NCBI RefSeq assembly: GCF_001697225.1
Contig: NZ_CP014671.1
Coordinates: forward strand, 1,984,001-2,048,000
Direction: 5' to 3'
Source: Immundisolibacter cernigliae
Lineage (GTDB): Bacteria > Pseudomonadota > Gammaproteobacteria > Immundisolibacterales > Immundisolibacteraceae
Length of the DNA stretch: 64,000 nucleotides
Every line of letters begins with the position of its first letter. Position 1 is the stretch's first letter. A program made the translations under genes and the position numbers. Of this stretch, positions 9,707 through 20,841 are shown piece after piece. The notes beneath the pieces were generated by a model, which saw nothing but the letters and a program-made list of their open reading frames with translations, was not told the DNA's origin and searched no databases.

Positions 9707-11251
9707 ATGGCATCCGACCTCGTCGCCATCGAAAACCGCCTGTGGGCCGCCGCCGACCAGCTTTGGGCCAACACGGGCCTGAAGCCCGCCGAGTTCTCCA
9801 CCCCGGTTCTCGGCCTGATCTTTCTGCGCTACGCCGACAAGCGCTTTGGCGAAGCCGAGCAGCTGCTGGACGCCAAAGGCCTCGCGCCCGATGAGCGCGA
9901 GGCCATGGACTACCAGGCCGAGGGCGTGCTCTACCTGCCGCTGCAGGCGCGTTTCTCGCACCTGCTCACGCTCACCGAGGGCGCCAACCTGGGCCGCGCC
10001 ATCGCCACCGCCATGGAGCTGGTGGAAGCGCACAACCCCGAGCTGCAAGGCGTGCTGCCGCGCGGCTACAACCTGCTGCCCAACGCCACGCTGGTGGAAC
10101 TGCTGCGCCTGCTCAGCTCCCTGGACCTGGAGGGCGACGCCTTCGGCAAGGTGTACGAGTACTTCCTGGGCAACTTCGCGCTCAAGGAGGGCCAGAAGGG
10201 CGGCGTGTTCTACACGCCCACCAGCATCGTGCGGCTGATCGTCGAGATCCTGCAGCCCTTCCACGGCCGCATCTTCGACCCCGCCTGCGGTTCGGGCGGC
10301 ATGTTCGTGCAGTCCGCCGCCTTCGTGCAGCGCCACCAGAAGAACGCCACCCGCGAACTGACCGTGTTCGGCACCGAGAAGGCCAGCGATACCGTCAAGC
10401 TGGCGAAGATGAACCTGGCGGTGCACGGCCTGTCCGGCGACGTGCGCGAGGCCAACACCTACTACGAAGACCCGCACAAGGCGCTCGGCCGCTTCGACTT
10501 CGTGATGGCCAATCCGCCGTTCAACGTCTCCGGCGTGGACAAGGACCGGCTGAAGGACGACCCCCGCTTCGCGCTCGGCCTGCCGAGCACGGACAACGCC
10601 AACTACCTGTGGATCCAGCTCTTCGCCGCCAGCCTGAACGAGAACGGCCGCGCCGGCTTCGTGATGGCCAACTCGGCCGGCGACGCGCGCGGCAGCGAGC
10701 TGGAGATCCGCAAGAAGCTGATCCAGTCCGGCGCGGTGGACGTCATCGTCAGCGTTGGCAGCAATTTTTTCTACACCGTCACGCTGCCCTGCACGCTGTG
10801 GTTCTTCGACCGGGCCAAGGCGCGCGGGCCGCGCAAGGACAAGGTGCTGTTTGTGGATGCGCGGCCGTTCTTCAAGCAGGTGAGCCGGGCGATCCGGGAG
10901 TTCACGCCGGAGCAGTTGGAGTACCTGGCCAACGTTGTGCGGCTGTATCGCGGCGAGACGCCGGAGTTCGAGCAGGGCAGCAAGGCCGCGTTGGCCGAGC
11001 GTTTTTCGGGTGGTCGGTATGCCGACGTGGCGGGGCTCTGCAAGGCAGCGACGCTGGACGAGATCAAGGCTCAGGGCTGGAGCTTGAACCCCGGCCGATA
11101 CGTGGGGGTCGGTGCTCGTGCGGCCGACGAGTTCGACTTCCTTGAGCGGTTGGAGGAACTGAACGAAGAGCTTGAGAGTTTGACGGGCGAGGCAAGGACT
11201 CTAGAAACGGTCATCGCGGCCAATGTTGCCTCACTTCTAGAGCGTGTCTGA
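9707..11251 (+). CDS. hsdM: Type I restriction-modification methyltransferase subunit M
   Basis: N6-adenine methyltransferase subunit of a type I R-M complex. It is 514 aa. An N-terminal HsdM helical domain ([20 protein letters not shown]) is followed by SAM-binding motif [11 protein letters not shown] near residue 190 and catalytic motif IV NPPFN near 268. The stop and the hsdS ATG share one base (TGATG), so M and S are coupled. It starts 51 bases after mnmE, at the left edge of the accessory island. A degenerate copy of its first codons lies at the right edge (about 19695-19777). Confidence 0.96.
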
Positions 11252-12522
11252 TGACGGCGACATGGCGAACCCTCACTCTTGGCGATGTGCTGCGCATCAA
11301 GCACGGCTACGCCTTTAAGGGAGAGTACTTCGCTGACGATGGGCCTTATGTCCTGCTCACGCCAGGAAACTTTGAGCCTTCGGGTGGCCTGAAGCTAAAA
11401 GGCGAGAAGGAGAAGTACTACGTGGGCGACTTTCCACCGCCCTTCGTGCTCGGGCGCGGTGACCTGCTGATTGCAATGACCGACCTGACGCAGTCTGCCC
11501 GCATCCTCGGTAGCCCGGCGGTTGTGCCCGAGTCAGATCGCTACCTGCACAACCAACGCTTGGGCAAGGTCGTTGAACTGAAGGAAGACTTGATCGACCG
11601 TCGGTTTCTCTATCATCTGCTGAACCACAATCACGTTCGCGAGCAGATCAAAGCGTCGGCTACCGGGGCTACCGTGCGCCACACTGCGCCCGAGAGAATT
11701 TATGCCGTCAAGGTTGCACTTCCAGACTTGGGCGCGCAGCGTCGCATCGCCTCGATCCTCTCCGCCTACGACGACCTGATCGAGAACAACACGCGGCGCA
11801 TCGCGATCCTGGAAGAGATGGCCCGGCGCATCTACGAGGAGTGGTTCGTCCGCTTCCGCTTCCCCGGCCACGAGGGCGTGCGGATGGTCGAGTCCGAGTT
11901 GGGGTTGGTGCCGGAGGGGTGGGGAGTGGCGACGCTCGGGCAGCTTGCCGAGGTCAACGCCCGCAGCGTGCGGCGCGGTGCGGAGCCGACCGAGATTCGA
12001 TATGTGGACATCTCATCGGTGTCCACCGGCAGCATCGACAACAAGGAGCCGATGCTGTTCGCAGACGCTCCGGGCCGGGCGCGGCGGATTGTCCGTGATG
12101 GCGACGTGATCTGGGCTTGCGTGCGGCCGAACCGCAAGTCCTACGCGCTGGTGCTGAACCCGGAGCCGAATCTACTGGTTTCGACAGGCTTCGCCGTGCT
12201 CTCGCCAGCGTCGGCGCCTTCGTCATTCATCTACCAGTGCGTGACCACTGACGACTTCGTTTCGTATCTGGTGAATCATGCAAAGGGCGCTGCGTATCCG
12301 GCAGTCGGTACAGAGGAGTTTGAGAACGCGAAGGTGTTGAAGCCCTCCGACAGCCTCGTGATCGAGTTCGATCGCATCGCGGAGCCGATGATGCGTCTCG
12401 TCGCTGCACTTCAGCTCAAGAACACCAACCTCCGCACCACCCGCGACCTCCTCCTCCCCAAGCTCATCTCCGGCGAACTGGACGTGTCGGCGCTGCCCGA
12501 ACCGGAGACCGTCGCTGCATGA
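11251..12522 (+). CDS. hsdS: Type I restriction-modification specificity subunit S
   Basis: Sequence-recognition subunit that sets the target for both methylation and cleavage. It is 423 aa with the usual two-TRD layout. TRD1 covers about residues 1-150. The central conserved helix region reads IASILSAYDDLIENNTRRIA. TRD2 begins near GWGVATLGQLAEVNARSV. The C-terminal repeat ends LLLPKLISGELDVSAL. The two TRDs are divergent in sequence, as expected for a bipartite target. It overlaps the next gene by 4 bases (ATGA). Confidence 0.95.
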   Translation: MTATWRTLTLGDVLRIKHGYAFKGEYFADDGPYVLLTPGNFEPSGGLKLKGEKEKYYVGDFPPPFVLGRGDLLIAMTDLTQSARILGSPAVVPESDRYLHNQRLGKVVELKEDLIDRRFLYHLLNHNHVREQIKASATGATVRHTAPERIYAVKVALPDLGAQRRIASILSAYDDLIENNTRRIAILEEMARRIYEEWFVRFRFPGHEGVRMVESELGLVPEGWGVATLGQLAEVNARSVRRGAEPTEIRYVDISSVSTGSIDNKEPMLFADAPGRARRIVRDGDVIWACVRPNRKSYALVLNPEPNLLVSTGFAVLSPASAPSSFIYQCVTTDDFVSYLVNHAKGAAYPAVGTEEFENAKVLKPSDSLVIEFDRIAEPMMRLVAALQLKNTNLRTTRDLLLPKLISGELDVSALPEPETVAA

Positions 12523-14165
12523 GCGAAGAAGGCCAGCTCTTCGACAAGAAGTCGCTGCGGGTGCTGCGGGACGGAGAGCGTGGCCTGCGCGAGCTGGCGG
12601 CCGATTGCGTGGCCATGGCCAACGCCAGCGGCGGCCGGCTGGCCATCGGCGTGGAAAACGATGCCGCGCACCCGCCGCCCGGGCAGCGCGTCACCGATGA
12701 ACAGGTGATGCGCCTGAACAAGCGCATCCCCACGCTGACGCTGAATGTGGCCGTGGCCGCCACCCGCCAGGTGGCCCCCAACGGCGGCGAATGGATCGAG
12801 CTGCAGGTGTTTGCGTCCCGGCAGGCGGTGGCGGCCACGTCTGACGGGCGCTACTACCTGCGCGTGGGTGACGAGTCGAGGCCCCTCATGCCCGAAGATC
12901 TGGCGCGGCTGGCCGGCGACAAGTCGGCCTTCGTCTGGGAGGCGCAGCCCCAGAGCCAAGTGCCGCGCAGCCGGGTGGACGCCGACAAGCTGCGCGACTT
13001 CGTGCAGGGCATTCGGGCGTCGGATCGGGTGAGCGCCCGAGTCAAGATCAAGAGCGACGCCGAGTTGCTGGACCACTACCTGATGGCCGACGCCGATCGC
13101 CTGACCAACCTGGGGGTGCTGTGGCTGGGCCAGCGGCCGGACCGTGCGGTGCTGCGCCATGCGCCCGTGATCCAGTGCATCCGCTTCGACGAGCAGGGCC
13201 TGAAGGTCTTCAAGCGCGTGTGGGACGACTACAGCCTGAACCCGCAGGAGCTGATCGACGCCGTGTGGCGCGAGGTGCCCGACTGGCAGGACAGCTACGA
13301 GTTCCCCGACGGGCTGTTCCGCAAGAACGTGCCGCACTTTGACGAGGTGGTGGTGCGCGAATTGCTGGCCAACGCCCTGGTGCACCGGCCCTACACCCAG
13401 GGCGGTGACATCTTCATCAACCTGTTCCCCGACCGGCTGGAGGTGCACAACCCCGGCCTGCTGCCGCTGGGCGTGACAGCGGCCAACATCCTGCACACCA
13501 GCCGCAAGCGCAACGACCACCTGGCCCAGGTGTTCTACGACCTGAAGCTGATGGAGCGCGAGGGCTCTGGCTACGACCGGCTGTACGAGCAGTTGCTCGC
13601 CAGCGGACGGCCCGGCCCGAAGGTGGAGGAAGGCGACGACCGCGTGACCGTGACCGTGCAGCGGCGCATCGCACACCCCGAGGTGATCGACCTGATCGGC
13701 AAGGCCGACAGCAGCTACCAGTTGCAGCCTCGCGAGCGCACGGCGCTGGGCCTGATCGCCCAGGAAGAGGCCATCACGGCTGCGCAGTTGGCCAAGGCAC
13801 TGGCTTTGCGCAATGCTGACGAGTTGCGGCCCTGGCTCGGCCGCCTGCTGGACTTTGGCTTGGTGTTGACACAGGGGCGTACCAAAGGCACCAACTACCG
13901 CGTCAACCCGGAGGTGCTGAAGGCCACCCAGTACCGCGGCCGCACCAGCCTGCGCGGCATCGAGCGGCACCGGCTGCGCGAGTTGGTGCTGCGTGACCTG
14001 GGAATCTACGGCCGGTCCAAACGGGGTGAGATTCACGCCCGCATCGGGGCGGAGATCCCGGAGCGCACCCTGCGCAGCGAGCTGGCGGCGATGGTGCAGG
14101 CCGGCCTGCTGACTCCGCTGGGTGAGGCCGGCGGCCGCCGGTATGAACTGACAGCCGGGCGCTGA
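12519..14165 (+). CDS. AlbA_2/Schlafen-like and HATPase-like protein within R-M locus
   Basis: A 548 aa protein. The N-terminal third (RELAADCVAMANASGGRLAI) looks like an AlbA_2/Schlafen-type divergent AAA/RNA-binding domain. The middle, VVRELLANALVHRPY followed by DRLEVHNPGLLP near residues 280-325, matches the GHKL ATPase-like domain found in RecG-like putative transcriptional regulators. The C-terminal part looks like winged helices. The start overlaps the hsdS stop by 4 bases, so it is coupled to the methylation genes and separated from hsdR. Such genes recur beside type I R-M systems; a regulatory or defence-related role is an inference. Domain assignment is moderately sure; function is unknown. 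Confidence 0.75.
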   Translation: MSEEGQLFDKKSLRVLRDGERGLRELAADCVAMANASGGRLAIGVENDAAHPPPGQRVTDEQVMRLNKRIPTLTLNVAVAATRQVAPNGGEWIELQVFASRQAVAATSDGRYYLRVGDESRPLMPEDLARLAGDKSAFVWEAQPQSQVPRSRVDADKLRDFVQGIRASDRVSARVKIKSDAELLDHYLMADADRLTNLGVLWLGQRPDRAVLRHAPVIQCIRFDEQGLKVFKRVWDDYSLNPQELIDAVWREVPDWQDSYEFPDGLFRKNVPHFDEVVVRELLANALVHRPYTQGGDIFINLFPDRLEVHNPGLLPLGVTAANILHTSRKRNDHLAQVFYDLKLMEREGSGYDRLYEQLLASGRPGPKVEEGDDRVTVTVQRRIAHPEVIDLIGKADSSYQLQPRERTALGLIAQEEAITAAQLAKALALRNADELRPWLGRLLDFGLVLTQGRTKGTNYRVNPEVLKATQYRGRTSLRGIERHRLRELVLRDLGIYGRSKRGEIHARIGAEIPERTLRSELAAMVQAGLLTPLGEAGGRRYELTAGR

Positions 14166-14319
14166 AACCAGGGCAGGACATGGCCAGTTTGTCAGTTCAA
14201 TCGCGGCATATCGAAACCAACGTATTGATTTATATATACGTGTTTGCGTTATGAAAAGTCAGTTGCCGAACTGGCGTTGTCAGTTCGGGCCGGGGGCCGT
14301 GTGGCGGCTGTTGCCGGCT

Positions 14320-14427
14320 GGATTGGATAGGCTGGCGGCCGAAGCCGGGGCTTAGCCAAGGATTTATCCAATCCGAGGCTGCGAAATCACACCAACTTAT
14401 TGAGTAAACAGTGATTTATTTTGGATA
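14320..14427. repeat. Inverted and direct copies of a TTGGATA motif before hsdR
   Basis: In the 272-base gap before hsdR, GGATTGGATA (14320-14329) has a perfect inverted partner TATCCAATCC (14365-14374), with a third copy of the core TTGGATA at 14421-14427, ten bases before the hsdR start. The gap is also locally AT-rich and contains three copies of GTCAGTT. The arrangement suggests operator sites for control of hsdR expression, but no binding protein is identified. Confidence 0.45.
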
Positions 14428-14437
14428 GGGGCGGCGA

Positions 14438-17400
14438 TTGAGCACTGATTCGAGCCAAGGCGCGAAGCATGTCGCGCGCGACGTCTCCGCCAGCTACGGC
14501 GAGCTGGCGCTGGTCGAGATGCCGGCAATCGAGCTGCTGACCTCGCTGGGCTGGAGTTTCAAGAACCTGTACGCCGAGACCTTCGGCGCGCAGGGCAGCG
14601 AGGGGCGCGAGAGCGAAACCCAGGTCATCCTGACGCGGCGCCTGCGCGCGGCGCTGGTGGCGCTGAACCCCGATCTGCCGGCCGACGCCTACACGCAAGC
14701 TGTCGAGCAGCTCGCGCAGGACCGCTCCAAGCAGATCGCCGTCAATGCGAACCGCGATTTCTACCGGCTGCTGAAGGACGGCGTGAAGGTGAAGGTGCCC
14801 GACGAGCATGGCGGGCACAGCACCGAGACCCTGCGCGTCATCGACTGGGCCACGCCGGCCAACAACCAGTTCTTCCTGGCCTCGCAGATGTGGGTGGCCG
14901 GCGACATGTACCGGCGCCGCTGCGATCTGCTGGCCTTCGTCAACGGCCTGCCGCTGGTGTTCATCGAGCTGAAGAAGCCAGCGGTGCCGCTGAAAAGTGC
15001 CTTCGATGACAACCTGCGCGATTACCGCGGCCAGTCGGTGCCGCAGTTGTTCCACCCCAATGCGTTCATCCTGCTCAGCAACGGCTCGGACACCCGCGTG
15101 GGCACGCTGACCAGCGCCTGGGAGCACTTCTTCGACTGGAAGCGCGTGGATGACGAGGCCGAGGCCGGCAAGGTCTCGTTGGAGCGCGCATTGCGCGGGC
15201 TGCTGGAACCGGCGCGGCTGCTGGATTACATCGAGAACTTCACGGTGTTCGAGGAGGGCAAGGGCGGGCTGATCAAGAAGGTGGCCAAGAACCACCAGTT
15301 CCTGGGCGTGAACAAATCCATCGCGCGGCTGGTGGAGTTGCGCGAGACCGAGAGGCTGGAGCGCAAGCGCCTGGGCGTGTTCTGGCACACACAGGGCTCG
15401 GGCAAGAGCCTGTCGATGGTGTTCTTCACCCAGAAGGTGCTGCGCAAGGTGCTGGGCAGTGCCACCTTCGTCATCGTCACCGACCGCGAGGAGCTGGACG
15501 ATCAGATCGCCAAGACCTTCAAGGCCACCGGCGCGACGCCCCGCGAGGACGTGCGCGCCACCAGTGGCGAACACCTGAAGGAGCTGCTGCGCGGCAACGA
15601 GCGCTACATCTTCACGCTGATCCAGAAGTTCCGGAACGAGCCGGGGCAGCCCTACCCGCTGCTGTCGGAGCGCGCCGACGTGATCGTCATCACCGACGAG
15701 GCGCACCGCAGCCAGTACGACATCTTTGCGCTGAACATGCGCAACGCGCTGCCCCACGCCGGCTTCATCGGCTTCACCGGCACGCCGCTGATCAAGGGCG
15801 AGGAGGAACGCACGCGCGAGGTGTTCGGCGACTACGTCAGCGTCTACGACTTCGCCCGCTCCATCGAGGACGGCGCCACGGTGCCGCTGTACTACGAGAA
15901 CCGCATCCCCGAGGTGCAGCTCACCAACCAGGACCTGAACCGCGACCTGGAGGCGCTGCTCGAAGCCGCCGAGCTGGACGAGGCGCAGGAGAAAAAGCTG
16001 GAGCGCGAGTTCGGCCGCGAGTACCACATCATCACCCGCGAGGATCGGCTGGAGGCCATCGCCAAGGATGTGGTGGCGCACTTCACCGGCCGCGGCTATC
16101 GCGGCAAGGCGATGATGGTGTGCATCGATAAGGCCACCGCGGTGCGCATGTACGACAAGGTGCAGGCGCACTGGCGGGCGCAGATTGCGCGGCTGAAACA
16201 GGCGCTGGAGTCTGCCCAGGGTGACGCCCGCGAGGCGCTGATCGCCCGCATCCGCCTGATGGAAACCACCGACATGGCCGTTGTGGTGAGCCAGGGCCAG
16301 AACGAGGTGGAAGACCTCAAGGCCAAAGGGCTCGACATCGTGCCGCACCGCCAGCGGCTACTGAAGGAAGCGCTCGACGAGAAATTCAAGGACGAGGCCG
16401 ACCCACTGCGGCTGGTGTTCGTATGCGCCATGTGGATCACCGGCTTCGACGTGCCGACCTGCTCGACCATGTACCTCGACAAGCCGATGCGCGCCCACAC
16501 GCTGATGCAGACCATTGCCCGCGCCAACCGTGTGGCGCCGGGCAAGGAGAGCGGCCTGATCGTGGACTACGTGGGCATCTTCCGCGCCTTGCAGAACGCG
16601 CTGGCCACCTATGCCCGGCCGGCGGCCGGTGGCGGCTCCGAGGGTGGCCATGAAGGCGGGCCGATTCTGGACAAGGCCGAGCTGGTGGCTGCGCTGCAAG
16701 CGACGCTGGACGAAACCGTGCTGTTTGCCGGCGCGCGCGGCGTGCGGCTGGAGGCGATCGCCAAGGCGCAGGGCTTCGCGCGCATCGGCCTGATCGACGA
16801 CGCGGTGGAGGCCCTGCTGGCCAGCGAGGCCGACAAGAAGCACTACCTGCAACTGGCCAGCCGCGTGGCGCGGCTGTTCAAGGCCATCCTGCCCGACGCC
16901 GCGGCCAACGCGCTGGCGCCGCTGGCGGTGCTGGTGGCTTATCTGGCGGCGAAGATTCAGGCGCTGGGCGAGCCGCCCGACATCTCGGCGGTGATGGGTG
17001 ATGTCGAAGCCCTGCTGAACGATTCCATCGCCACCGAGGGCTATCACATCGGCCCGGCCAGCCGGCCCGAGGCGCTGGTCAACCTGTCGGAGATCGACTT
17101 CGCCGCACTGCAAGCCAAGTTCGCTCAGGGCCACCAGCGCACCGAGGCCGAGAAACTGAAGCGGCTGATCGAGGGCCGGCTGGCGCAGATGCTGGCGGTG
17201 AACGGCTCGCGCATCGATCTGGCGGAGAAGTTCCAGCAGCTGATCGACGAGTACAACGCCGGCAGCCGCAACGTCGAAGAATTCTTCGACGGGCTCAAGG
17301 ACTTTGTCGCGGCGCTGACCGCCGAGGAACAGCGCGGCATCGCCGAGGGCCTGAGCGAGGAAGAGCTGGCGCTTTTCGACATCCTGACCAAGCCAGAGCC

Positions 17401-17662
17401 GGTGCTGACCAAGGCCGAGGAGGCCGAGGTCAAGAAGGTGTGCCGCGAATTGCTGGCGACGCTGAAGCGGGAAAAACTGGTGCTCGACTGGCGCGAGAAG
17501 CAGCAGGCGAAAGCGGCGGTGATGCAGACGCTCCGGACGGAGATGCGGCGGCTGCCGGCGCAGTACACGCGCGACTTGCGGGCCGAAAAGATGGCGCGGG
17601 CGTATGCTCACGTCTACGATCACTATTCCGGGGCCACTGTCTCGGCCAAGTGGCGGTCATGA
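14438..17662 (+). CDS. hsdR: Type I restriction endonuclease subunit R
   Basis: Translocase-nuclease subunit that cleaves unmethylated DNA. It is 1074 aa from a TTG start at 14438, preceded by a GGATAGGGG stretch that can serve as ribosome-binding site. The PD-(D/E)xK nuclease core is RRRCDLLAF plus LVFIELKKP near residues 160-180. Walker A is HTQGSGKSLSM near 315, and the DEAD-like motif II is VITDEAHRSQYD near 415. Motif VI-like ARANRVAPGKE is near 690. The C-terminal helical domain is full length, so the system looks intact. Separation from hsdMS by one gene and a repeat-bearing gap suggests its own regulation. Confidence 0.96.
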   Translation: MSTDSSQGAKHVARDVSASYGELALVEMPAIELLTSLGWSFKNLYAETFGAQGSEGRESETQVILTRRLRAALVALNPDLPADAYTQAVEQLAQDRSKQIAVNANRDFYRLLKDGVKVKVPDEHGGHSTETLRVIDWATPANNQFFLASQMWVAGDMYRRRCDLLAFVNGLPLVFIELKKPAVPLKSAFDDNLRDYRGQSVPQLFHPNAFILLSNGSDTRVGTLTSAWEHFFDWKRVDDEAEAGKVSLERALRGLLEPARLLDYIENFTVFEEGKGGLIKKVAKNHQFLGVNKSIARLVELRETERLERKRLGVFWHTQGSGKSLSMVFFTQKVLRKVLGSATFVIVTDREELDDQIAKTFKATGATPREDVRATSGEHLKELLRGNERYIFTLIQKFRNEPGQPYPLLSERADVIVITDEAHRSQYDIFALNMRNALPHAGFIGFTGTPLIKGEEERTREVFGDYVSVYDFARSIEDGATVPLYYENRIPEVQLTNQDLNRDLEALLEAAELDEAQEKKLEREFGREYHIITREDRLEAIAKDVVAHFTGRGYRGKAMMVCIDKATAVRMYDKVQAHWRAQIARLKQALESAQGDAREALIARIRLMETTDMAVVVSQGQNEVEDLKAKGLDIVPHRQRLLKEALDEKFKDEADPLRLVFVCAMWITGFDVPTCSTMYLDKPMRAHTLMQTIARANRVAPGKESGLIVDYVGIFRALQNALATYARPAAGGGSEGGHEGGPILDKAELVAALQATLDETVLFAGARGVRLEAIAKAQGFARIGLIDDAVEALLASEADKKHYLQLASRVARLFKAILPDAAANALAPLAVLVAYLAAKIQALGEPPDISAVMGDVEALLNDSIATEGYHIGPASRPEALVNLSEIDFAALQAKFAQGHQRTEAEKLKRLIEGRLAQMLAVNGSRIDLAEKFQQLIDEYNAGSRNVEEFFDGLKDFVAALTAEEQRGIAEGLSEEELALFDILTKPEPVLTKAEEAEVKKVCRELLATLKREKLVLDWREKQQAKAAVMQTLRTEMRRLPAQYTRDLRAEKMARAYAHVYDHYSGATVSAKWRS

Positions 17663-17804
17663 CCCGAAGCCTTGGATCGGACGCGTCGGCGCACTAGCTT
17701 ATGCGCAGGCGGAACACCTGTTTAGCTGATGACCCCCCCGCTGCTCGGGTCGGTTATGCTCTAAAATCTGTCGAATCATTGCTCTTGGCTAGGACCACCG
17801 ACGC

Positions 17805-18461
17805 ATGGATCTGATCCCCTCAGAGACTTCCCTCGTGGTTGCGGGGTCGTGGAACGCCGCTATTCTTACACCTACATGGATGTTGCGGCACGGGTTCCAA
17901 CGCGCGGCTGGCGAGTCGAGTAACGTCCAGGTATTCCTGCCCGCCGTTCAGGGAGCGGTCTTCGAATTCCCGAGGTTTGCCCTCGAGGAGCTTTCATACA
18001 TCGTTCGTCCCGATGCCCTCTTGGTTCTCCCTAGCGATTCGAGACCGGAGCGCTTTGAATTGGCTGAGCAGGTGACAGCCCGCGTAGTACGAGTTCTGTC
18101 CCATACTCCGATTTCCGGGATTGGTCACAACTTCGAGTTTCGTGAGCCGGCGGCCATACCGCAAGAGGTGGCGGTCTTCACTGGGTCTCGGCAGGACCTG
18201 GTGGATCAGATGCCAGAAGGTTGGGCGCCAGCCGGGGTCGTAATCGCATCGTCTTTCAAGAACGGGGCGGAAACGGTTCACGTCAACATTCAACGGCAGT
18301 GGGACGGGGGAGCCATATCGGTGAAGTTTAACTTCCACCATCCCGTGTCCAATGTTGATCAGGCTATTGCAGTACTCGAAGGTAGAGATGGTTACGTGAA
18401 TATGGCTCAAAACCTAGTGTTTGCGAAGACGGTGATTGCGTCACTCTATAGGGGAGATTGA
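17805..18461 (+). CDS. Unrecognised protein, first gene of a three-gene cassette
   Basis: A 218 aa protein I do not recognise. It has no signal peptide or clear membrane segment. Visible features are a start MDLIPSETSLVVAGSWNAAI, a central acidic and aromatic stretch ISGIGHNFEFREP, and a C-terminal half with KFNFHHPVSNVDQAI. Codon use is visibly less GC-rich than in its neighbours, consistent with horizontal transfer. It begins 142 bases after hsdR and ends two bases before the next gene, so it is probably co-transcribed with the following two. Confidence 0.7.
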   Translation: MDLIPSETSLVVAGSWNAAILTPTWMLRHGFQRAAGESSNVQVFLPAVQGAVFEFPRFALEELSYIVRPDALLVLPSDSRPERFELAEQVTARVVRVLSHTPISGIGHNFEFREPAAIPQEVAVFTGSRQDLVDQMPEGWAPAGVVIASSFKNGAETVHVNIQRQWDGGAISVKFNFHHPVSNVDQAIAVLEGRDGYVNMAQNLVFAKTVIASLYRGD

Positions 18462-18462
18462 A

Positions 18463-18759
18463 GTGACTGGCAATATGCGAATCTTTGAGACTGCCGAACT
18501 TGTTTCGGCGACAGGTTGGAAACTTGTGGATCAACCACAAAGCGTTGCGCTGCCCTCTGACACGCGTGGGACTTCGAATCATGGCGTGCTTATGGTACAA
18601 GGGCGCATTGTTGAACAGGTACAAGGCGGCGCCCAATTTGTAGTGACAGTCGACCCGGCCGCGATTGACCGCAAGCTCGCAATCAGAAAGCTGAATGATC
18701 GGCTTGAAGGCTACACGCCGCGCAATGACACTTTTGCTGATACCAAGGCCCAGCGTTGA
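18463..18759 (+). CDS. Unrecognised small protein, second gene of cassette
   Basis: A 98 aa protein from GTG at 18463. A GGGGAG ribosome-binding site at 18451-18456 favours this start over the upstream TTG at 18436; an ATG at 18475 is the alternative. It continues MRIFETAELVSATGW and ends with the charged stretch DRKLAIRKLNDRLEGYTP. No known domain was recognised. It is one base from the preceding stop region and 18 bases from the next start, so it belongs to the same unit. Confidence 0.6.
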   Translation: MTGNMRIFETAELVSATGWKLVDQPQSVALPSDTRGTSNHGVLMVQGRIVEQVQGGAQFVVTVDPAAIDRKLAIRKLNDRLEGYTPRNDTFADTKAQR

Positions 18760-18777
18760 GGTTCATTCTCTCCGCGC

Positions 18778-19644
18778 ATGCACTTCACTTACGAACACAA
18801 TCCATGTACGACGGAGCTGATGCAGGGCGACGTGCTCGATCGTACGCCGGAGATCAATGCCCTGCTGAACGAGGTTCACCCTCACTTTTATCGTGATCAG
18901 AAGAACTGCTTCTTCATGGTACTAACGCAGAGTTGCGACTTGGTGCGTCGCGCCGAAGGCTTGTGTAAGGCGCCATACATAACCCTTGCTCCGGTTAGGT
19001 CGTTAGACTTGGTTGTTGAGCGGCATCTGACCCAGATCCCCGTCGCAAAGGTCAACGCCGAGCTCCCGGTTCTCGGTACGAAGGCAAAGTCCAAGGCATC
19101 TGAGTTCCTCCAGCGCCTCTTCAACAATAACGAGTCGGGGTATTTCTTCCTCGACTCGGAAGATACCCAGCTCAACTACGATTGCGTCGCGTTTCTCAAC
19201 TTGTCGATCGCGATCAAGTCGGACCTGCATTTGGAGAAGTGTCTCAAGGCCAAAATTTTGCAGCTTGATGCAACTTTTCAGGCCAAGCTTGGGTGGCTGG
19301 TCGGACAAATGTATTCGCGGGTCGGGACCTTGGATTGGGATCCGACTGAGCTGAAGAGGAAGGTTAGTACAGTATTGCAGGAGGCTGCCATCTGGGTCGA
19401 CGATAGCAAAGTTCCTTCACTGGAGGATGCGTTTAGAGCCTTCACGCAGGAGAACCCAGACTCACGCATGACGCAGGCTGAAATCGCTCGCGTTATTGCC
19501 AAGGTGCCTAAAAAGAAGCAATTGGTGCTCAAAGAGGCGGCGCGCGTGATAGAAGAAGTTCTCGGCCCTGAACATGCATCTCTCGCGGAAAAAGTTCGGA
19601 GGCGGCTTGAGGGCGACGCAGGGCTCGCAACCTTGTTGCAGTAG
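18778..19644 (+). CDS. Unrecognised protein with QGDVL and LTQSCDLV motifs
   Basis: A 288 aa soluble protein I cannot name. Near the N-terminus LMQGDVLDRTPEI is followed at about residue 45 by FFMVLTQSCDLVRRAEG, where the Cys-Asp pair looks like a conserved functional site. A helical, charged C-terminal region follows (VPKKKQLVLKEAARVIEEVL). Base composition is lower in GC than the flanking chromosome. It is last of the cassette and just precedes the hsdM remnant at the island edge. A defence role is suggested only by location. Confidence 0.7.
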   Translation: MHFTYEHNPCTTELMQGDVLDRTPEINALLNEVHPHFYRDQKNCFFMVLTQSCDLVRRAEGLCKAPYITLAPVRSLDLVVERHLTQIPVAKVNAELPVLGTKAKSKASEFLQRLFNNNESGYFFLDSEDTQLNYDCVAFLNLSIAIKSDLHLEKCLKAKILQLDATFQAKLGWLVGQMYSRVGTLDWDPTELKRKVSTVLQEAAIWVDDSKVPSLEDAFRAFTQENPDSRMTQAEIARVIAKVPKKKQLVLKEAARVIEEVLGPEHASLAEKVRRRLEGDAGLATLLQ

Positions 19645-19694
19645 CGCTGAAGGCGGATTTACGTAGCTGCCCTTCAAGACCACTCGGGGAAGCA

Positions 19695-19777
19695 CGCAAT
19701 CCCTGCTGAACCGCCCCCCTCCGGGGCGCTGCCGACCAACTGCGGGCTAATGCCGGCCTCAAGCCAGCCGAACCCTA
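19695..19777 (+). pseudogene. Degenerate remnant of an hsdM 5' end
   Basis: Bases 19728-19777 can be read as AADQLRANAGLKPAEP, against [16 protein letters not shown] at residues 14-29 of the hsdM at 9707. About three quarters of the bases are identical. Weaker similarity (AI...ENR) reaches back to about 19695 with indels. There is no start codon in frame and no continuation, so it is a relic of a second, related hsdM. It lies between the three-gene cassette and the chromosomal luciferase-like gene and marks the right edge of the island. Confidence 0.65.
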
Positions 19778-19818
19778 CCCACCATCCCGTCTCTGGCCCG
19801 CCCTTTTTCTGGATAACT

Positions 19819-20841
19819 TCAGTCGGCCAGGCCAAACGCTCCGGCCAGAAGTTCGTACGACCGCTCGCGGTCGGCGTAGTGGTAGGTGACGGTGACGACG
19901 CTGACCTCGTCGGTGCCGTACTCGGCGGCCTGCGCCTCGATCTGCTGGCGGCACTCGTCCGGCGTGCCGATGATGGAGTGGTCGAGCACGGCCTGGTACT
20001 GCGCGCGCTCGCCGGGGCCCATGGCCGACAGCAGGCGATCGACCTCGTCCGGGCTCGGCAGGTCGATGATTCGTCCGCGTGACAGGGCCTGGTAAATCCA
20101 CATGCTGCGCGTGCCGGCAATGCGCATCGCCTCGTCCCGCGTGGGCGCGCACACGGCCGCTACGGCGATCATGACGCGCGGCTCTTGCAGGCTCTTGGAC
20201 GGCTGAAAGGCGCGCCGGTAGGCCTCGACGATGGCCGGCGAGCGGGCGTGGGTGCCGATGAACAGCGCCAGCACGAAGCCGCTGCCCAGTTGCCCGGCCA
20301 CCTCGGCACTGCCGCCGCTGGAGCCCAGCATCCAGAACTGCGGCACGCCGCCGTCTTCCGGCACCAGGCGGATGCCGTGGAACGGGTGCTGGGGCGGCAG
20401 GTCGTTGTTCAGGTAACCCATCAGGTCGAACACCTGACGCGGGTATAGGTCCGAGTTGATCGGCTGGCGCGGGTAGGCCAGGGCCGCGGTGGCCTGGCCA
20501 TCGCCGCCCGGCGCGCGGCCCACGCCCAGATCGATGCGGCCGGGGTAGAGCACTTCCAGCATGCGGAAGGTCTCGGCCACCTTGTACGGCGGGTAGTGCG
20601 GCAGCATGATGCCGCCGCTGCCGACCCGGATGCGCCGCGTGTGGGCGGCGATGTGGCCGATCAGGATTTCCGGGCAGGGGCCGGCGTAGCCGGGCGTGTT
20701 GTGGTGTTCGGCCAGCCAGTAGCGGTGATAGCCGAAGCGCTCGCAGGCCTGCGCCAGGCGCAGACTGTCGTGCGGGCCGCGCGATGGGCGGCCGCCGTCG
20801 TGGATGGGGGATTGGTCGGTGACGCTCAGTTTGATGGCCAT
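19819..20841 (-). CDS. LLM-class flavin-dependent oxidoreductase
   Basis: Luciferase-like monooxygenase family enzyme of the YhbW type. It is 340 aa. The N-terminal pattern KLSVTDQSPI, then ERFGYHRYWLAEHHNTPGYA near residue 40, RVGSGGIMLPHYPPYKVAE near 72 and PGRIDLGVGRAPGG near 100 are all characteristic. The substrate cannot be deduced. It stands alone, divergent from the GNAT gene, and its 3' end abuts the R-M island. Confidence 0.88.
   Translation of the reverse strand: MAIKLSVTDQSPIHDGGRPSRGPHDSLRLAQACERFGYHRYWLAEHHNTPGYAGPCPEILIGHIAAHTRRIRVGSGGIMLPHYPPYKVAETFRMLEVLYPGRIDLGVGRAPGGDGQATAALAYPRQPINSDLYPRQVFDLMGYLNNDLPPQHPFHGIRLVPEDGGVPQFWMLGSSGGSAEVAGQLGSGFVLALFIGTHARSPAIVEAYRRAFQPSKSLQEPRVMIAVAAVCAPTRDEAMRIAGTRSMWIYQALSRGRIIDLPSPDEVDRLLSAMGPGERAQYQAVLDHSIIGTPDECRQQIEAQAAEYGTDEVSVVTVTYHYADRERSYELLAGAFGLAD

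What the first reader, a model, noticed from the sequence alone, without database searches (positions are those of the whole stretch)
17805..19644. Three-gene cassette of unrecognised proteins beside a type I R-M system
Three tightly spaced genes (gaps of 1 and 18 bases) have visibly lower GC than the chromosome, sit directly after hsdR, and end at the island edge. None matches a family I know. The third carries a striking QGDVL plus LTQSCDLV pair. Known defence islands accumulate exactly such accessory modules, so this is the best candidate for an undescribed system, most likely phage defence or control of the R-M genes.
Basis: partly seen in the sequence, partly recalled or inferred. Interest (0 to 1): 0.6.

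Follow-up and report, generated by a model that had tools for sequence, protein, structure and literature searches.

The report
Mobile three-gene toxin-like cassette beside R-M
Three small genes beside a DNA-cutting defence system form a mobile cassette found together in distant bacteria and in several phages; the third encodes a protein shaped like the MazF family of cell-stopping toxins, so the cassette is probably an undescribed infection-triggered (or addiction) module.

Summary
In detail: three tightly coupled low-GC genes lie between hsdR and a luciferase-like gene. A same-genus relative has the same hsd locus (hsdR 97.6% identical) without them: 2,183 bp of the window (17634-19816) is 88 bp there. 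The trio matches nothing in Pfam, NCBIfam or PADLOC, yet it is a real unit: of 24 relatives of gene 3 from one genome scan, 20 have gene 1 and a small gene 2 directly upstream, in many phyla, and genes 1 and 3 co-vary. It also occurs in phage contigs and prophages. Linkage to type I R-M recurs but in only 4 of 24 loci. The AlphaFold model of gene 3 (pLDDT 93) has a MazF/CcdB-type fold plus a helical domain; MazF catalytic residues appear not conserved. Related operons swap parts: TIGR04255 + small gene + a gene-3 relative or a true PemK, and gene-1 relative + linker + metallo-beta-lactamase-fold protein. Most likely it is a three-part, toxin-antitoxin-like conflict module acquired as a cassette, acting beside R-M systems rather than as part of them. 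Activity is untested; the mechanism is inferred.

The parts
17634..19816 (+). Whole inserted cassette, replaced by 88 bp in same-genus genome G538
   Evidence: blastn of window against L080: homology stops at 17633 and resumes at 19817
17805..18461 (+). Gene 1, 218 aa head protein; alpha/beta fold, no trusted PDB match
   Evidence: ORF; relatives upstream of gene 3 in 20 of 24 scanned loci; model pLDDT 91.8; folds
18463..18759 (+). Gene 2, 98 aa small fast-evolving partner with conserved C-terminal segment (LAIRKLNDRLEG); GTG start preceded by AGGGGA
18778..19644 (+). Gene 3, 288 aa; MazF/CcdB-fold domain (residues about 11-181) plus helical domain (about 189-287)
18823..18837 (+). Codons of QGDVL, residues 16-20 of gene 3 (Q16, G17 invariant)
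18922..18945 (+). Codons of LTQSCDLV, residues 49-56 of gene 3 (L49, Q51-L55 invariant)
9707..17662 (+). Context: type I R-M locus hsdM (9707-11251), hsdS (11251-12522), SLFN_AlbA_2 gene (12519-14165), hsdR (14438-17662)
19819..20841 (-). Context: luciferase-like monooxygenase gene, chromosomal right flank of the cassette
   Evidence: PF00296 E 4.9e-40; 99% identical in G538

Best explanation
A mobile, self-contained three-gene conflict module. Gene 3 is the effector: a MazF/CcdB-fold protein with a family-specific conserved site (QGD...LTQSCDLV) and an added helical domain. Gene 2 is a small, fast-evolving partner encoded just before it, whose conserved C-terminal tail probably binds gene 3 and keeps it inactive, as MazE and CcdA tails do for their toxins. 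Gene 1 is a structured head protein that probably senses an invader or a disturbed cell and gates release of gene 3, which then stops growth (abortive infection). The module is carried on phages and inserted beside other defence genes such as type I R-M. Shown here: the unit, its spread, its insertion, the predicted fold of gene 3, the part-swapping in related operons. Inferred: toxicity, inhibition by gene 2, sensing by gene 1, the anti-phage role.
For: Conserved order and tight coupling in 20 of 24 scanned loci over many phyla; genes 1 and 3 co-vary (Mantel r 0.515, p 0.0001). Clean presence/absence against a same-genus genome, low GC. Predicted fold of gene 3: Foldseek top 50 all MazF family, 8 under E 1e-3; VIA Z 8.9 to MazF, 8.5 to CcdB. 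A TIGR04255 + small gene + PemK operon (PF02452, E 1.1e-18) and TIGR04255 + small gene + gene-3-like operons, the latter matching gene 3 by profile (probability 90, E 1.6e-6). Phage and prophage carriage and defence neighbours: type I R-M, PglZ, OLD-like, SIR2, TIR.
Against: No activity data. The MazF catalytic Arg and Ser/Thr positions are not conserved by a sequence-anchored comparison, and no profile links gene 3 to PemK. Gene 2 shows no recognisable antitoxin domain. Several loci have no obvious defence neighbour, and no background rate was computed.
Confidence: 0.5

Rival explanations
1. Plain addiction (stabilisation) module: a three-part toxin-antitoxin cassette that keeps phages, prophages or R-M islands in place, with no dedicated phage sensing.
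For: Carriage on mobile elements and beside R-M genes; MazF/CcdB-type fold; TIGR04255-linked PemK.
Against: A third structured gene is always kept with the pair, which a plain two-part addiction module does not need; no match in 72,556 plasmid records for the queries used, although classical addiction modules are common on plasmids.
Confidence: 0.22
2. Regulator of R-M: the trio senses DNA or phage status and controls neighbouring restriction genes; the MazF-fold domain is a binding or output domain, not a toxin.
For: Same-strand placement right after hsd genes in the window, L027 and L045; a gene-3-like domain is C-terminal to a receiver domain in R-M loci with a GHKL ATPase, Dcm and Vsr.
Against: About 20 of 24 trios have no type I R-M nearby, several are inside phages, and a sister species has the same hsd operon without it.
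Confidence: 0.13
3. Phage-derived counter-defence or host-takeover module that protects its carrier from restriction or from other systems.
For: Presence in phage contigs next to structural genes (L028, L044, L046, L048).
Against: Most copies are in bacterial loci, some directly downstream of R-M genes on the same strand; cos-proximal loci of P2-like phages are known carriers of anti-phage genes (PMC9122126).
Confidence: 0.1

Closest known systems
MazEF / PemIK (Kid-Kis) and CcdAB toxin-antitoxin pairs
   Same: Predicted fold of gene 3 residues 11-181; small variable gene just upstream of the MazF-fold gene; one TIGR04255-headed relative operon ends in a true PemK.
   Different: No sequence-profile match to PemK; catalytic residues of MazF apparently not conserved; extra C-terminal helical domain; a third, structured gene 1; gene 2 has no recognised antitoxin domain.
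TIGR04255-headed operons (NCBIfam 'sporadically distributed' family)
   Same: Same layout: head protein of similar size, small variable gene, then a gene with QGDI...TQSCDL / SNTCDM motifs (L051, L085, L088); third genes match gene 3 by profile.
   Different: Gene 1 does not match TIGR04255 by HMM or by profile-profile comparison. No function of TIGR04255 was found in the papers searched.
Gene-1 relative + linker + metallo-beta-lactamase-fold operons (L107-L109)
   Same: Gene 1 family heads a three-gene operon with a variable middle gene; one is in a filamentous prophage with Zot and RstB-like genes.
   Different: The third gene is a Lactamase_B-fold protein, not MazF-fold; the middle gene is about 200 aa.
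Response_reg_2 / HEF_HK paraMORC systems linked to R-M (PMC8011034)
   Same: L041 and L043 have a receiver protein with a gene-3-like C-terminal domain next to a GHKL ATPase and a C5 methylase.
   Different: The L041 and L043 receivers did not match PF19192; there is no gene 1 or gene 2 there.
Accessory hotspot of P2-like phages (old/tin locus; PMC9122126)
   Same: In L044 the trio and an OLD-like ATPase lie next to the portal gene, the side on which P2 carries old and tin.
   Different: gpA was not seen in the stretch held, so the hotspot assignment is incomplete.

Membership tests
MazF/PemK toxin (type II toxin-antitoxin) | MazF/CcdB-type fold of the toxin | tested here: met
   AlphaFold model pLDDT 93; Foldseek E 5e-4, probability 1.00; VIA Z 8.9 over residues 11-181. 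Predicted, not solved.
MazF/PemK toxin (type II toxin-antitoxin) | Match to PF02452 or other MazF sequence profile | tested here: not met
   No Pfam match for any of 22 members; hhalign to PemK alignment probability 0.1.
MazF/PemK toxin (type II toxin-antitoxin) | Catalytic Arg at start of strand 2 and Ser/Thr at end of strand 3 | tested here: inconclusive
MazF/PemK toxin (type II toxin-antitoxin) | Small antitoxin gene directly upstream | tested here: inconclusive
   A small gene is there in all 20 loci but has no recognised antitoxin domain.
MazF/PemK toxin (type II toxin-antitoxin) | RNase activity, toxicity neutralised by partner | not testable with these tools
   Needs expression and assay.
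Accessory component of type I R-M | Regular co-occurrence with hsd genes | tested here: not met
   4 of 24 loci (window, L027, L045, L031); absent from the same hsd locus in G538.
TIGR04255 family (gene 1) | Match to the TIGR04255 model | tested here: not met
   No match for the window or for L028, L044, L045, L048 gene 1; hhalign probability 0.2.
Known anti-phage system (PADLOC-DB 2.0.0) | Match to a PADLOC protein model | tested here: not met
   No match at E<=1 for genes 1-3.
Anti-phage defence system (any) | Reduces phage infection | not testable with these tools
   Phage plating needed.

The most novel reading that the evidence does not exclude
A previously undescribed modular immune (or addiction) superfamily: a head protein (gene 1 family, or TIGR04255) + a variable adaptor + an exchangeable effector (the gene-3 MazF-fold family, true PemK, or a metallo-beta-lactamase-fold protein), carried by tailed and filamentous phages and slotted into R-M and methylase/DUF499 loci; the same gene-3 domain is also the output domain of receiver proteins in paraMORC-type R-M systems.
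Probability: 0.45. Interest if true: 0.8.

Novelty: new variant of a known kind. Interest (0 to 1): 0.62.

Why it matters
If right, it adds an uncatalogued three-part module, absent from Pfam, NCBIfam and PADLOC, to the toxin-based conflict systems; it gives a testable role to the TIGR04255 family and an output domain to R-M-linked receiver proteins; and it extends the MazF/CcdB fold to a family with a different conserved site (QSCD). It predicts which gene is toxic and which protects, so simple bench tests decide it.

Tried and rejected
Gene 1 as a TIGR04255 member: rejected as a membership claim because the HMM and the profile comparison fail, although the operon layout matches. Gene 3 as PemK by sequence: no signal. 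PDB sequence searches with alignments A3, A4 and A8 gave nothing credible. Gene 1 fold: VIA best Z 6.5, a tied mixture of arginine kinase, McsB, TBP and AdoMetDC, below what can be trusted; Foldseek PDB has no hit under 1e-3; the best BFVD hit A0A515MGR4 (E 2e-8, TM 0.62) is unnamed. Plasmid and phage record collections: no match. First viral scan with gene 3 alone: nothing. Weak single-protein hits L004-L006, L009, L013 and L014 were not used; the L013 match is in another frame of an oxidase locus. Insertion by a recognisable element: no flanking direct or inverted repeats. No sigma-70-type promoter or terminator match. Literature: no paper found that describes the trio or TIGR04255; the BREX survey PMC12839542 does not mention MazF, PemK or CcdB.

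Full report
What is there. The three ORFs are real and placed as described: 17805-18461, 18463-18759 and 18778-19644, same strand, gaps of 1 and 18 bases. Their GC (0.54-0.56) and GC3 (0.52-0.67) are well below those of hsdM, hsdS, the AlbA gene and hsdR (GC3 0.78-0.91). None of the three proteins matches Pfam, NCBIfam or PADLOC at E<=1, and PHROGs and PDB sequences give nothing credible.

A discrete cassette. The window lies in a 3.24 Mb single-contig genome. A same-genus genome (G538) has mnmE (98%) and the luciferase-like gene (99%) at the same place. Between them it carries hsdM (93%), a different hsdS, a Fic gene where the window has the AlbA_2/HATPase_c_4 gene, and hsdR (97.6%), but no trio: window 17634-19816 (2,183 bp) corresponds to 88 bp there (Fic). 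So the trio is a separate insertion at the 3' end of hsdR or, less likely given its low GC, a deletion in G538. No flanking repeats were found. A gene-3 profile search of 369 genomes of the class found no other close relative, including the same-genus and same-family genomes; one weak hit there, L051, is discussed below.

A conserved unit. A scan of 84,980 species with a gene-3 alignment gave 24 loci. In 17 a gene-1 homolog is found by plain phmmer about 1 kb upstream (3 kb in L024); reading the upstream ORFs of the rest raises this to 20, with a small gene in between in nearly all, in Alpha-, Beta-, Gamma- and Deltaproteobacteria, Firmicutes, Nitrospira, Planctomycetes, Chloroflexi, Armatimonadota and Omnitrophota (L024 is split by transposase genes; the three added by reading also score strongly with the gene-1 profile, but that profile contains them). 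The four exceptions are an IS-broken copy that keeps a gene-2 remnant (L033 = G035), a stand-alone relative (L042), and two receiver-domain fusions (L041, L043). Apart from L024 the spacing is small overlaps or a few tens of bases, at most 85. Gene-1 and gene-3 distances correlate across 22 loci (Mantel r 0.515, p 0.0001; r 0.436, p 0.001 without the closest relatives). Gene 2 evolves fastest (median identity to the window 17%, against 23% for gene 1 and 38% for gene 3), with a recognisable C-terminal segment in the closer members.

Where it lives. Three viral contigs carry gene 1 and gene 3 together: L044, beside P2-type portal, terminase, scaffold and major head genes and an OLD-like ATPase; L045, directly after hsdM-hsdS-hsdR, the same cassette order as in the window; and L048, after phage-like late genes, with gene 3 cut near the contig end (its putative capsid gene had no Pfam hit). 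L046 has gene 3 at the contig edge followed by head genes. In L028 the trio sits in a Firmicutes prophage between a sigma-like regulator and the terminase. In bacterial loci, hsdR-hsdM-hsdS lie directly upstream in L027 and hsdR about 7 kb upstream in L031; an SNF2 helicase and PglZ are upstream and SIR2 downstream in L030; an OLD-like ATPase in L034; a TIR protein near L035, a phage integrase near L038 and GmrSD_N near L039. Other loci (for example L020, L026, L036, L040) show no obvious defence gene. I computed no background rate, so this is a pattern and not an enrichment test. Linkage to R-M is recurrent but not general.

What gene 3 is. The AlphaFold model from 22 relatives has pLDDT 93.2. 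Foldseek against the PDB returns MazF-family toxins throughout the 50 rows shown, eight under E 1e-3; VIA-align gives Z 8.9 (rmsd 3.8, 112 residues) to MazF and 8.5 to CcdB over model residues 11-181. The C-terminal helices (189-287) are not covered by the match. Sequence profiles do not see the link. With the weak alignment of gene-3-like proteins to PemK as an anchor, the positions that correspond to the catalytic Arg and Ser/Thr of MazF are variable and Arg respectively, whereas Q16, G17, L49 and Q51-L55 are invariant. So it has a MazF-type shape but, as far as sequence tells, not its known active site.

Related operons point to exchangeable parts. A profile hit in another genome (L051; E 1.3e-5) proved to be the third gene of an operon headed by a TIGR04255 protein (E 5e-35) followed by a 102 aa gene. 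A search for TIGR04255 in 249 genomes found it in 20. The downstream genes include third genes with the motif QGDI...ILLSNTCDMS in L085 and L088, weaker look-alikes in L087 and L093, and in L086 a true PemK toxin (PF02452, E 1.1e-18). That L086 trio lies inside a same-strand run of genes with a DUF499 ATPase and a DNA methylase (L111). Gene 3 and these TIGR04255-linked proteins match by profile (probability 90, E 1.6e-6; L051, itself found with the gene-3 profile, is one of the four rows). Conversely, searching 398 genomes with the gene-1 profile found three gene-1 relatives (E 1.3e-13, 1.2e-8, 7e-5), each followed by a linker of about 200 aa and a metallo-beta-lactamase-fold protein, one of them (L108) in a filamentous prophage with Zot and RstB-like genes. 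Gene 1 itself cannot be linked to TIGR04255 by profile, so their kinship is only suggested by operon layout.

Receiver fusions. In L041 (and, more weakly, L043) the C-terminal part of a receiver-like protein next to a GHKL ATPase and Dcm (and Vsr in L041) is related to gene 3 (E 4.8e-8 and 1.2e-4). Such loci resemble the Response_reg_2/HEF_HK systems of PMC8011034, whose receiver proteins had no other known domain.

Mechanism. Shown: a mobile, conserved operon with a predicted MazF-fold third gene, a small variable second gene, and related operons with exchanged parts including a genuine toxin. Inferred: gene 3 is the effector, gene 2 a tail-type inhibitor or adaptor, gene 1 the sensor or gate, and the output is growth arrest during infection. 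I give 0.5 to this whole statement and about 0.8 to the weaker claim that the trio is an accessory mobile conflict module of some kind. The rivals (addiction cassette, R-M regulator, phage counter-defence) each have a simple refuting test.

Novelty. No database model and no paper found covers the trio. Because the effector fold and the layout resemble toxin-antitoxin modules, I rate it a new variant of a known kind rather than categorically new.

Noticed in passing
window 12519-14165 and L080:4312-5436: The slot between hsdS and hsdR holds an SLFN_AlbA_2/HATPase_c_4 gene in the window but a Fic/DOC gene in the same-genus genome G538: a second exchangeable cargo slot in the same R-M operon.
   Followed up: partly
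L041:9422-10483, L043:9431-10519: Receiver-like proteins next to GHKL ATPase, Dcm (and Vsr) carry a gene-3-like C-terminal domain, a possible output domain for paraMORC-linked R-M systems.
   Followed up: partly
L111:884-9269: A TIGR04255 + 95 aa + PemK trio lies in a same-strand run between a DUF499 ATPase and a DNA methylase gene, a BREX-related type of locus.
   Followed up: partly
L108:5166-7570: Gene-1 relative + linker + metallo-beta-lactamase-fold protein in a filamentous prophage (Zot, RstB-like genes).
   Followed up: partly
L082, L091, L098, L099, L100: TIGR04255 also heads other three-gene operons with middle genes of about 165-208 aa and third genes of about 130-166 aa that show no gene-3 motif; partners unidentified.
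   Followed up: no
L010:7453-9301 (G035, same place as L033): Gene 3 copy broken by a transposase insertion, with only the C-terminal remnant of gene 2 left beside an IS256-type transposase.
   Followed up: yes
L024:6609-10821 (Nitrobacter sp. Nb-311A): Another trio interrupted between genes 1 and 3 by transposase genes; part of the stretch reads as N.
   Followed up: partly
L042:479-1498 (Bdellovibrionales): Stand-alone divergent gene-3 relative (E 5e-24) with a 67 aa ORF just upstream and no gene 1 seen.
   Followed up: no
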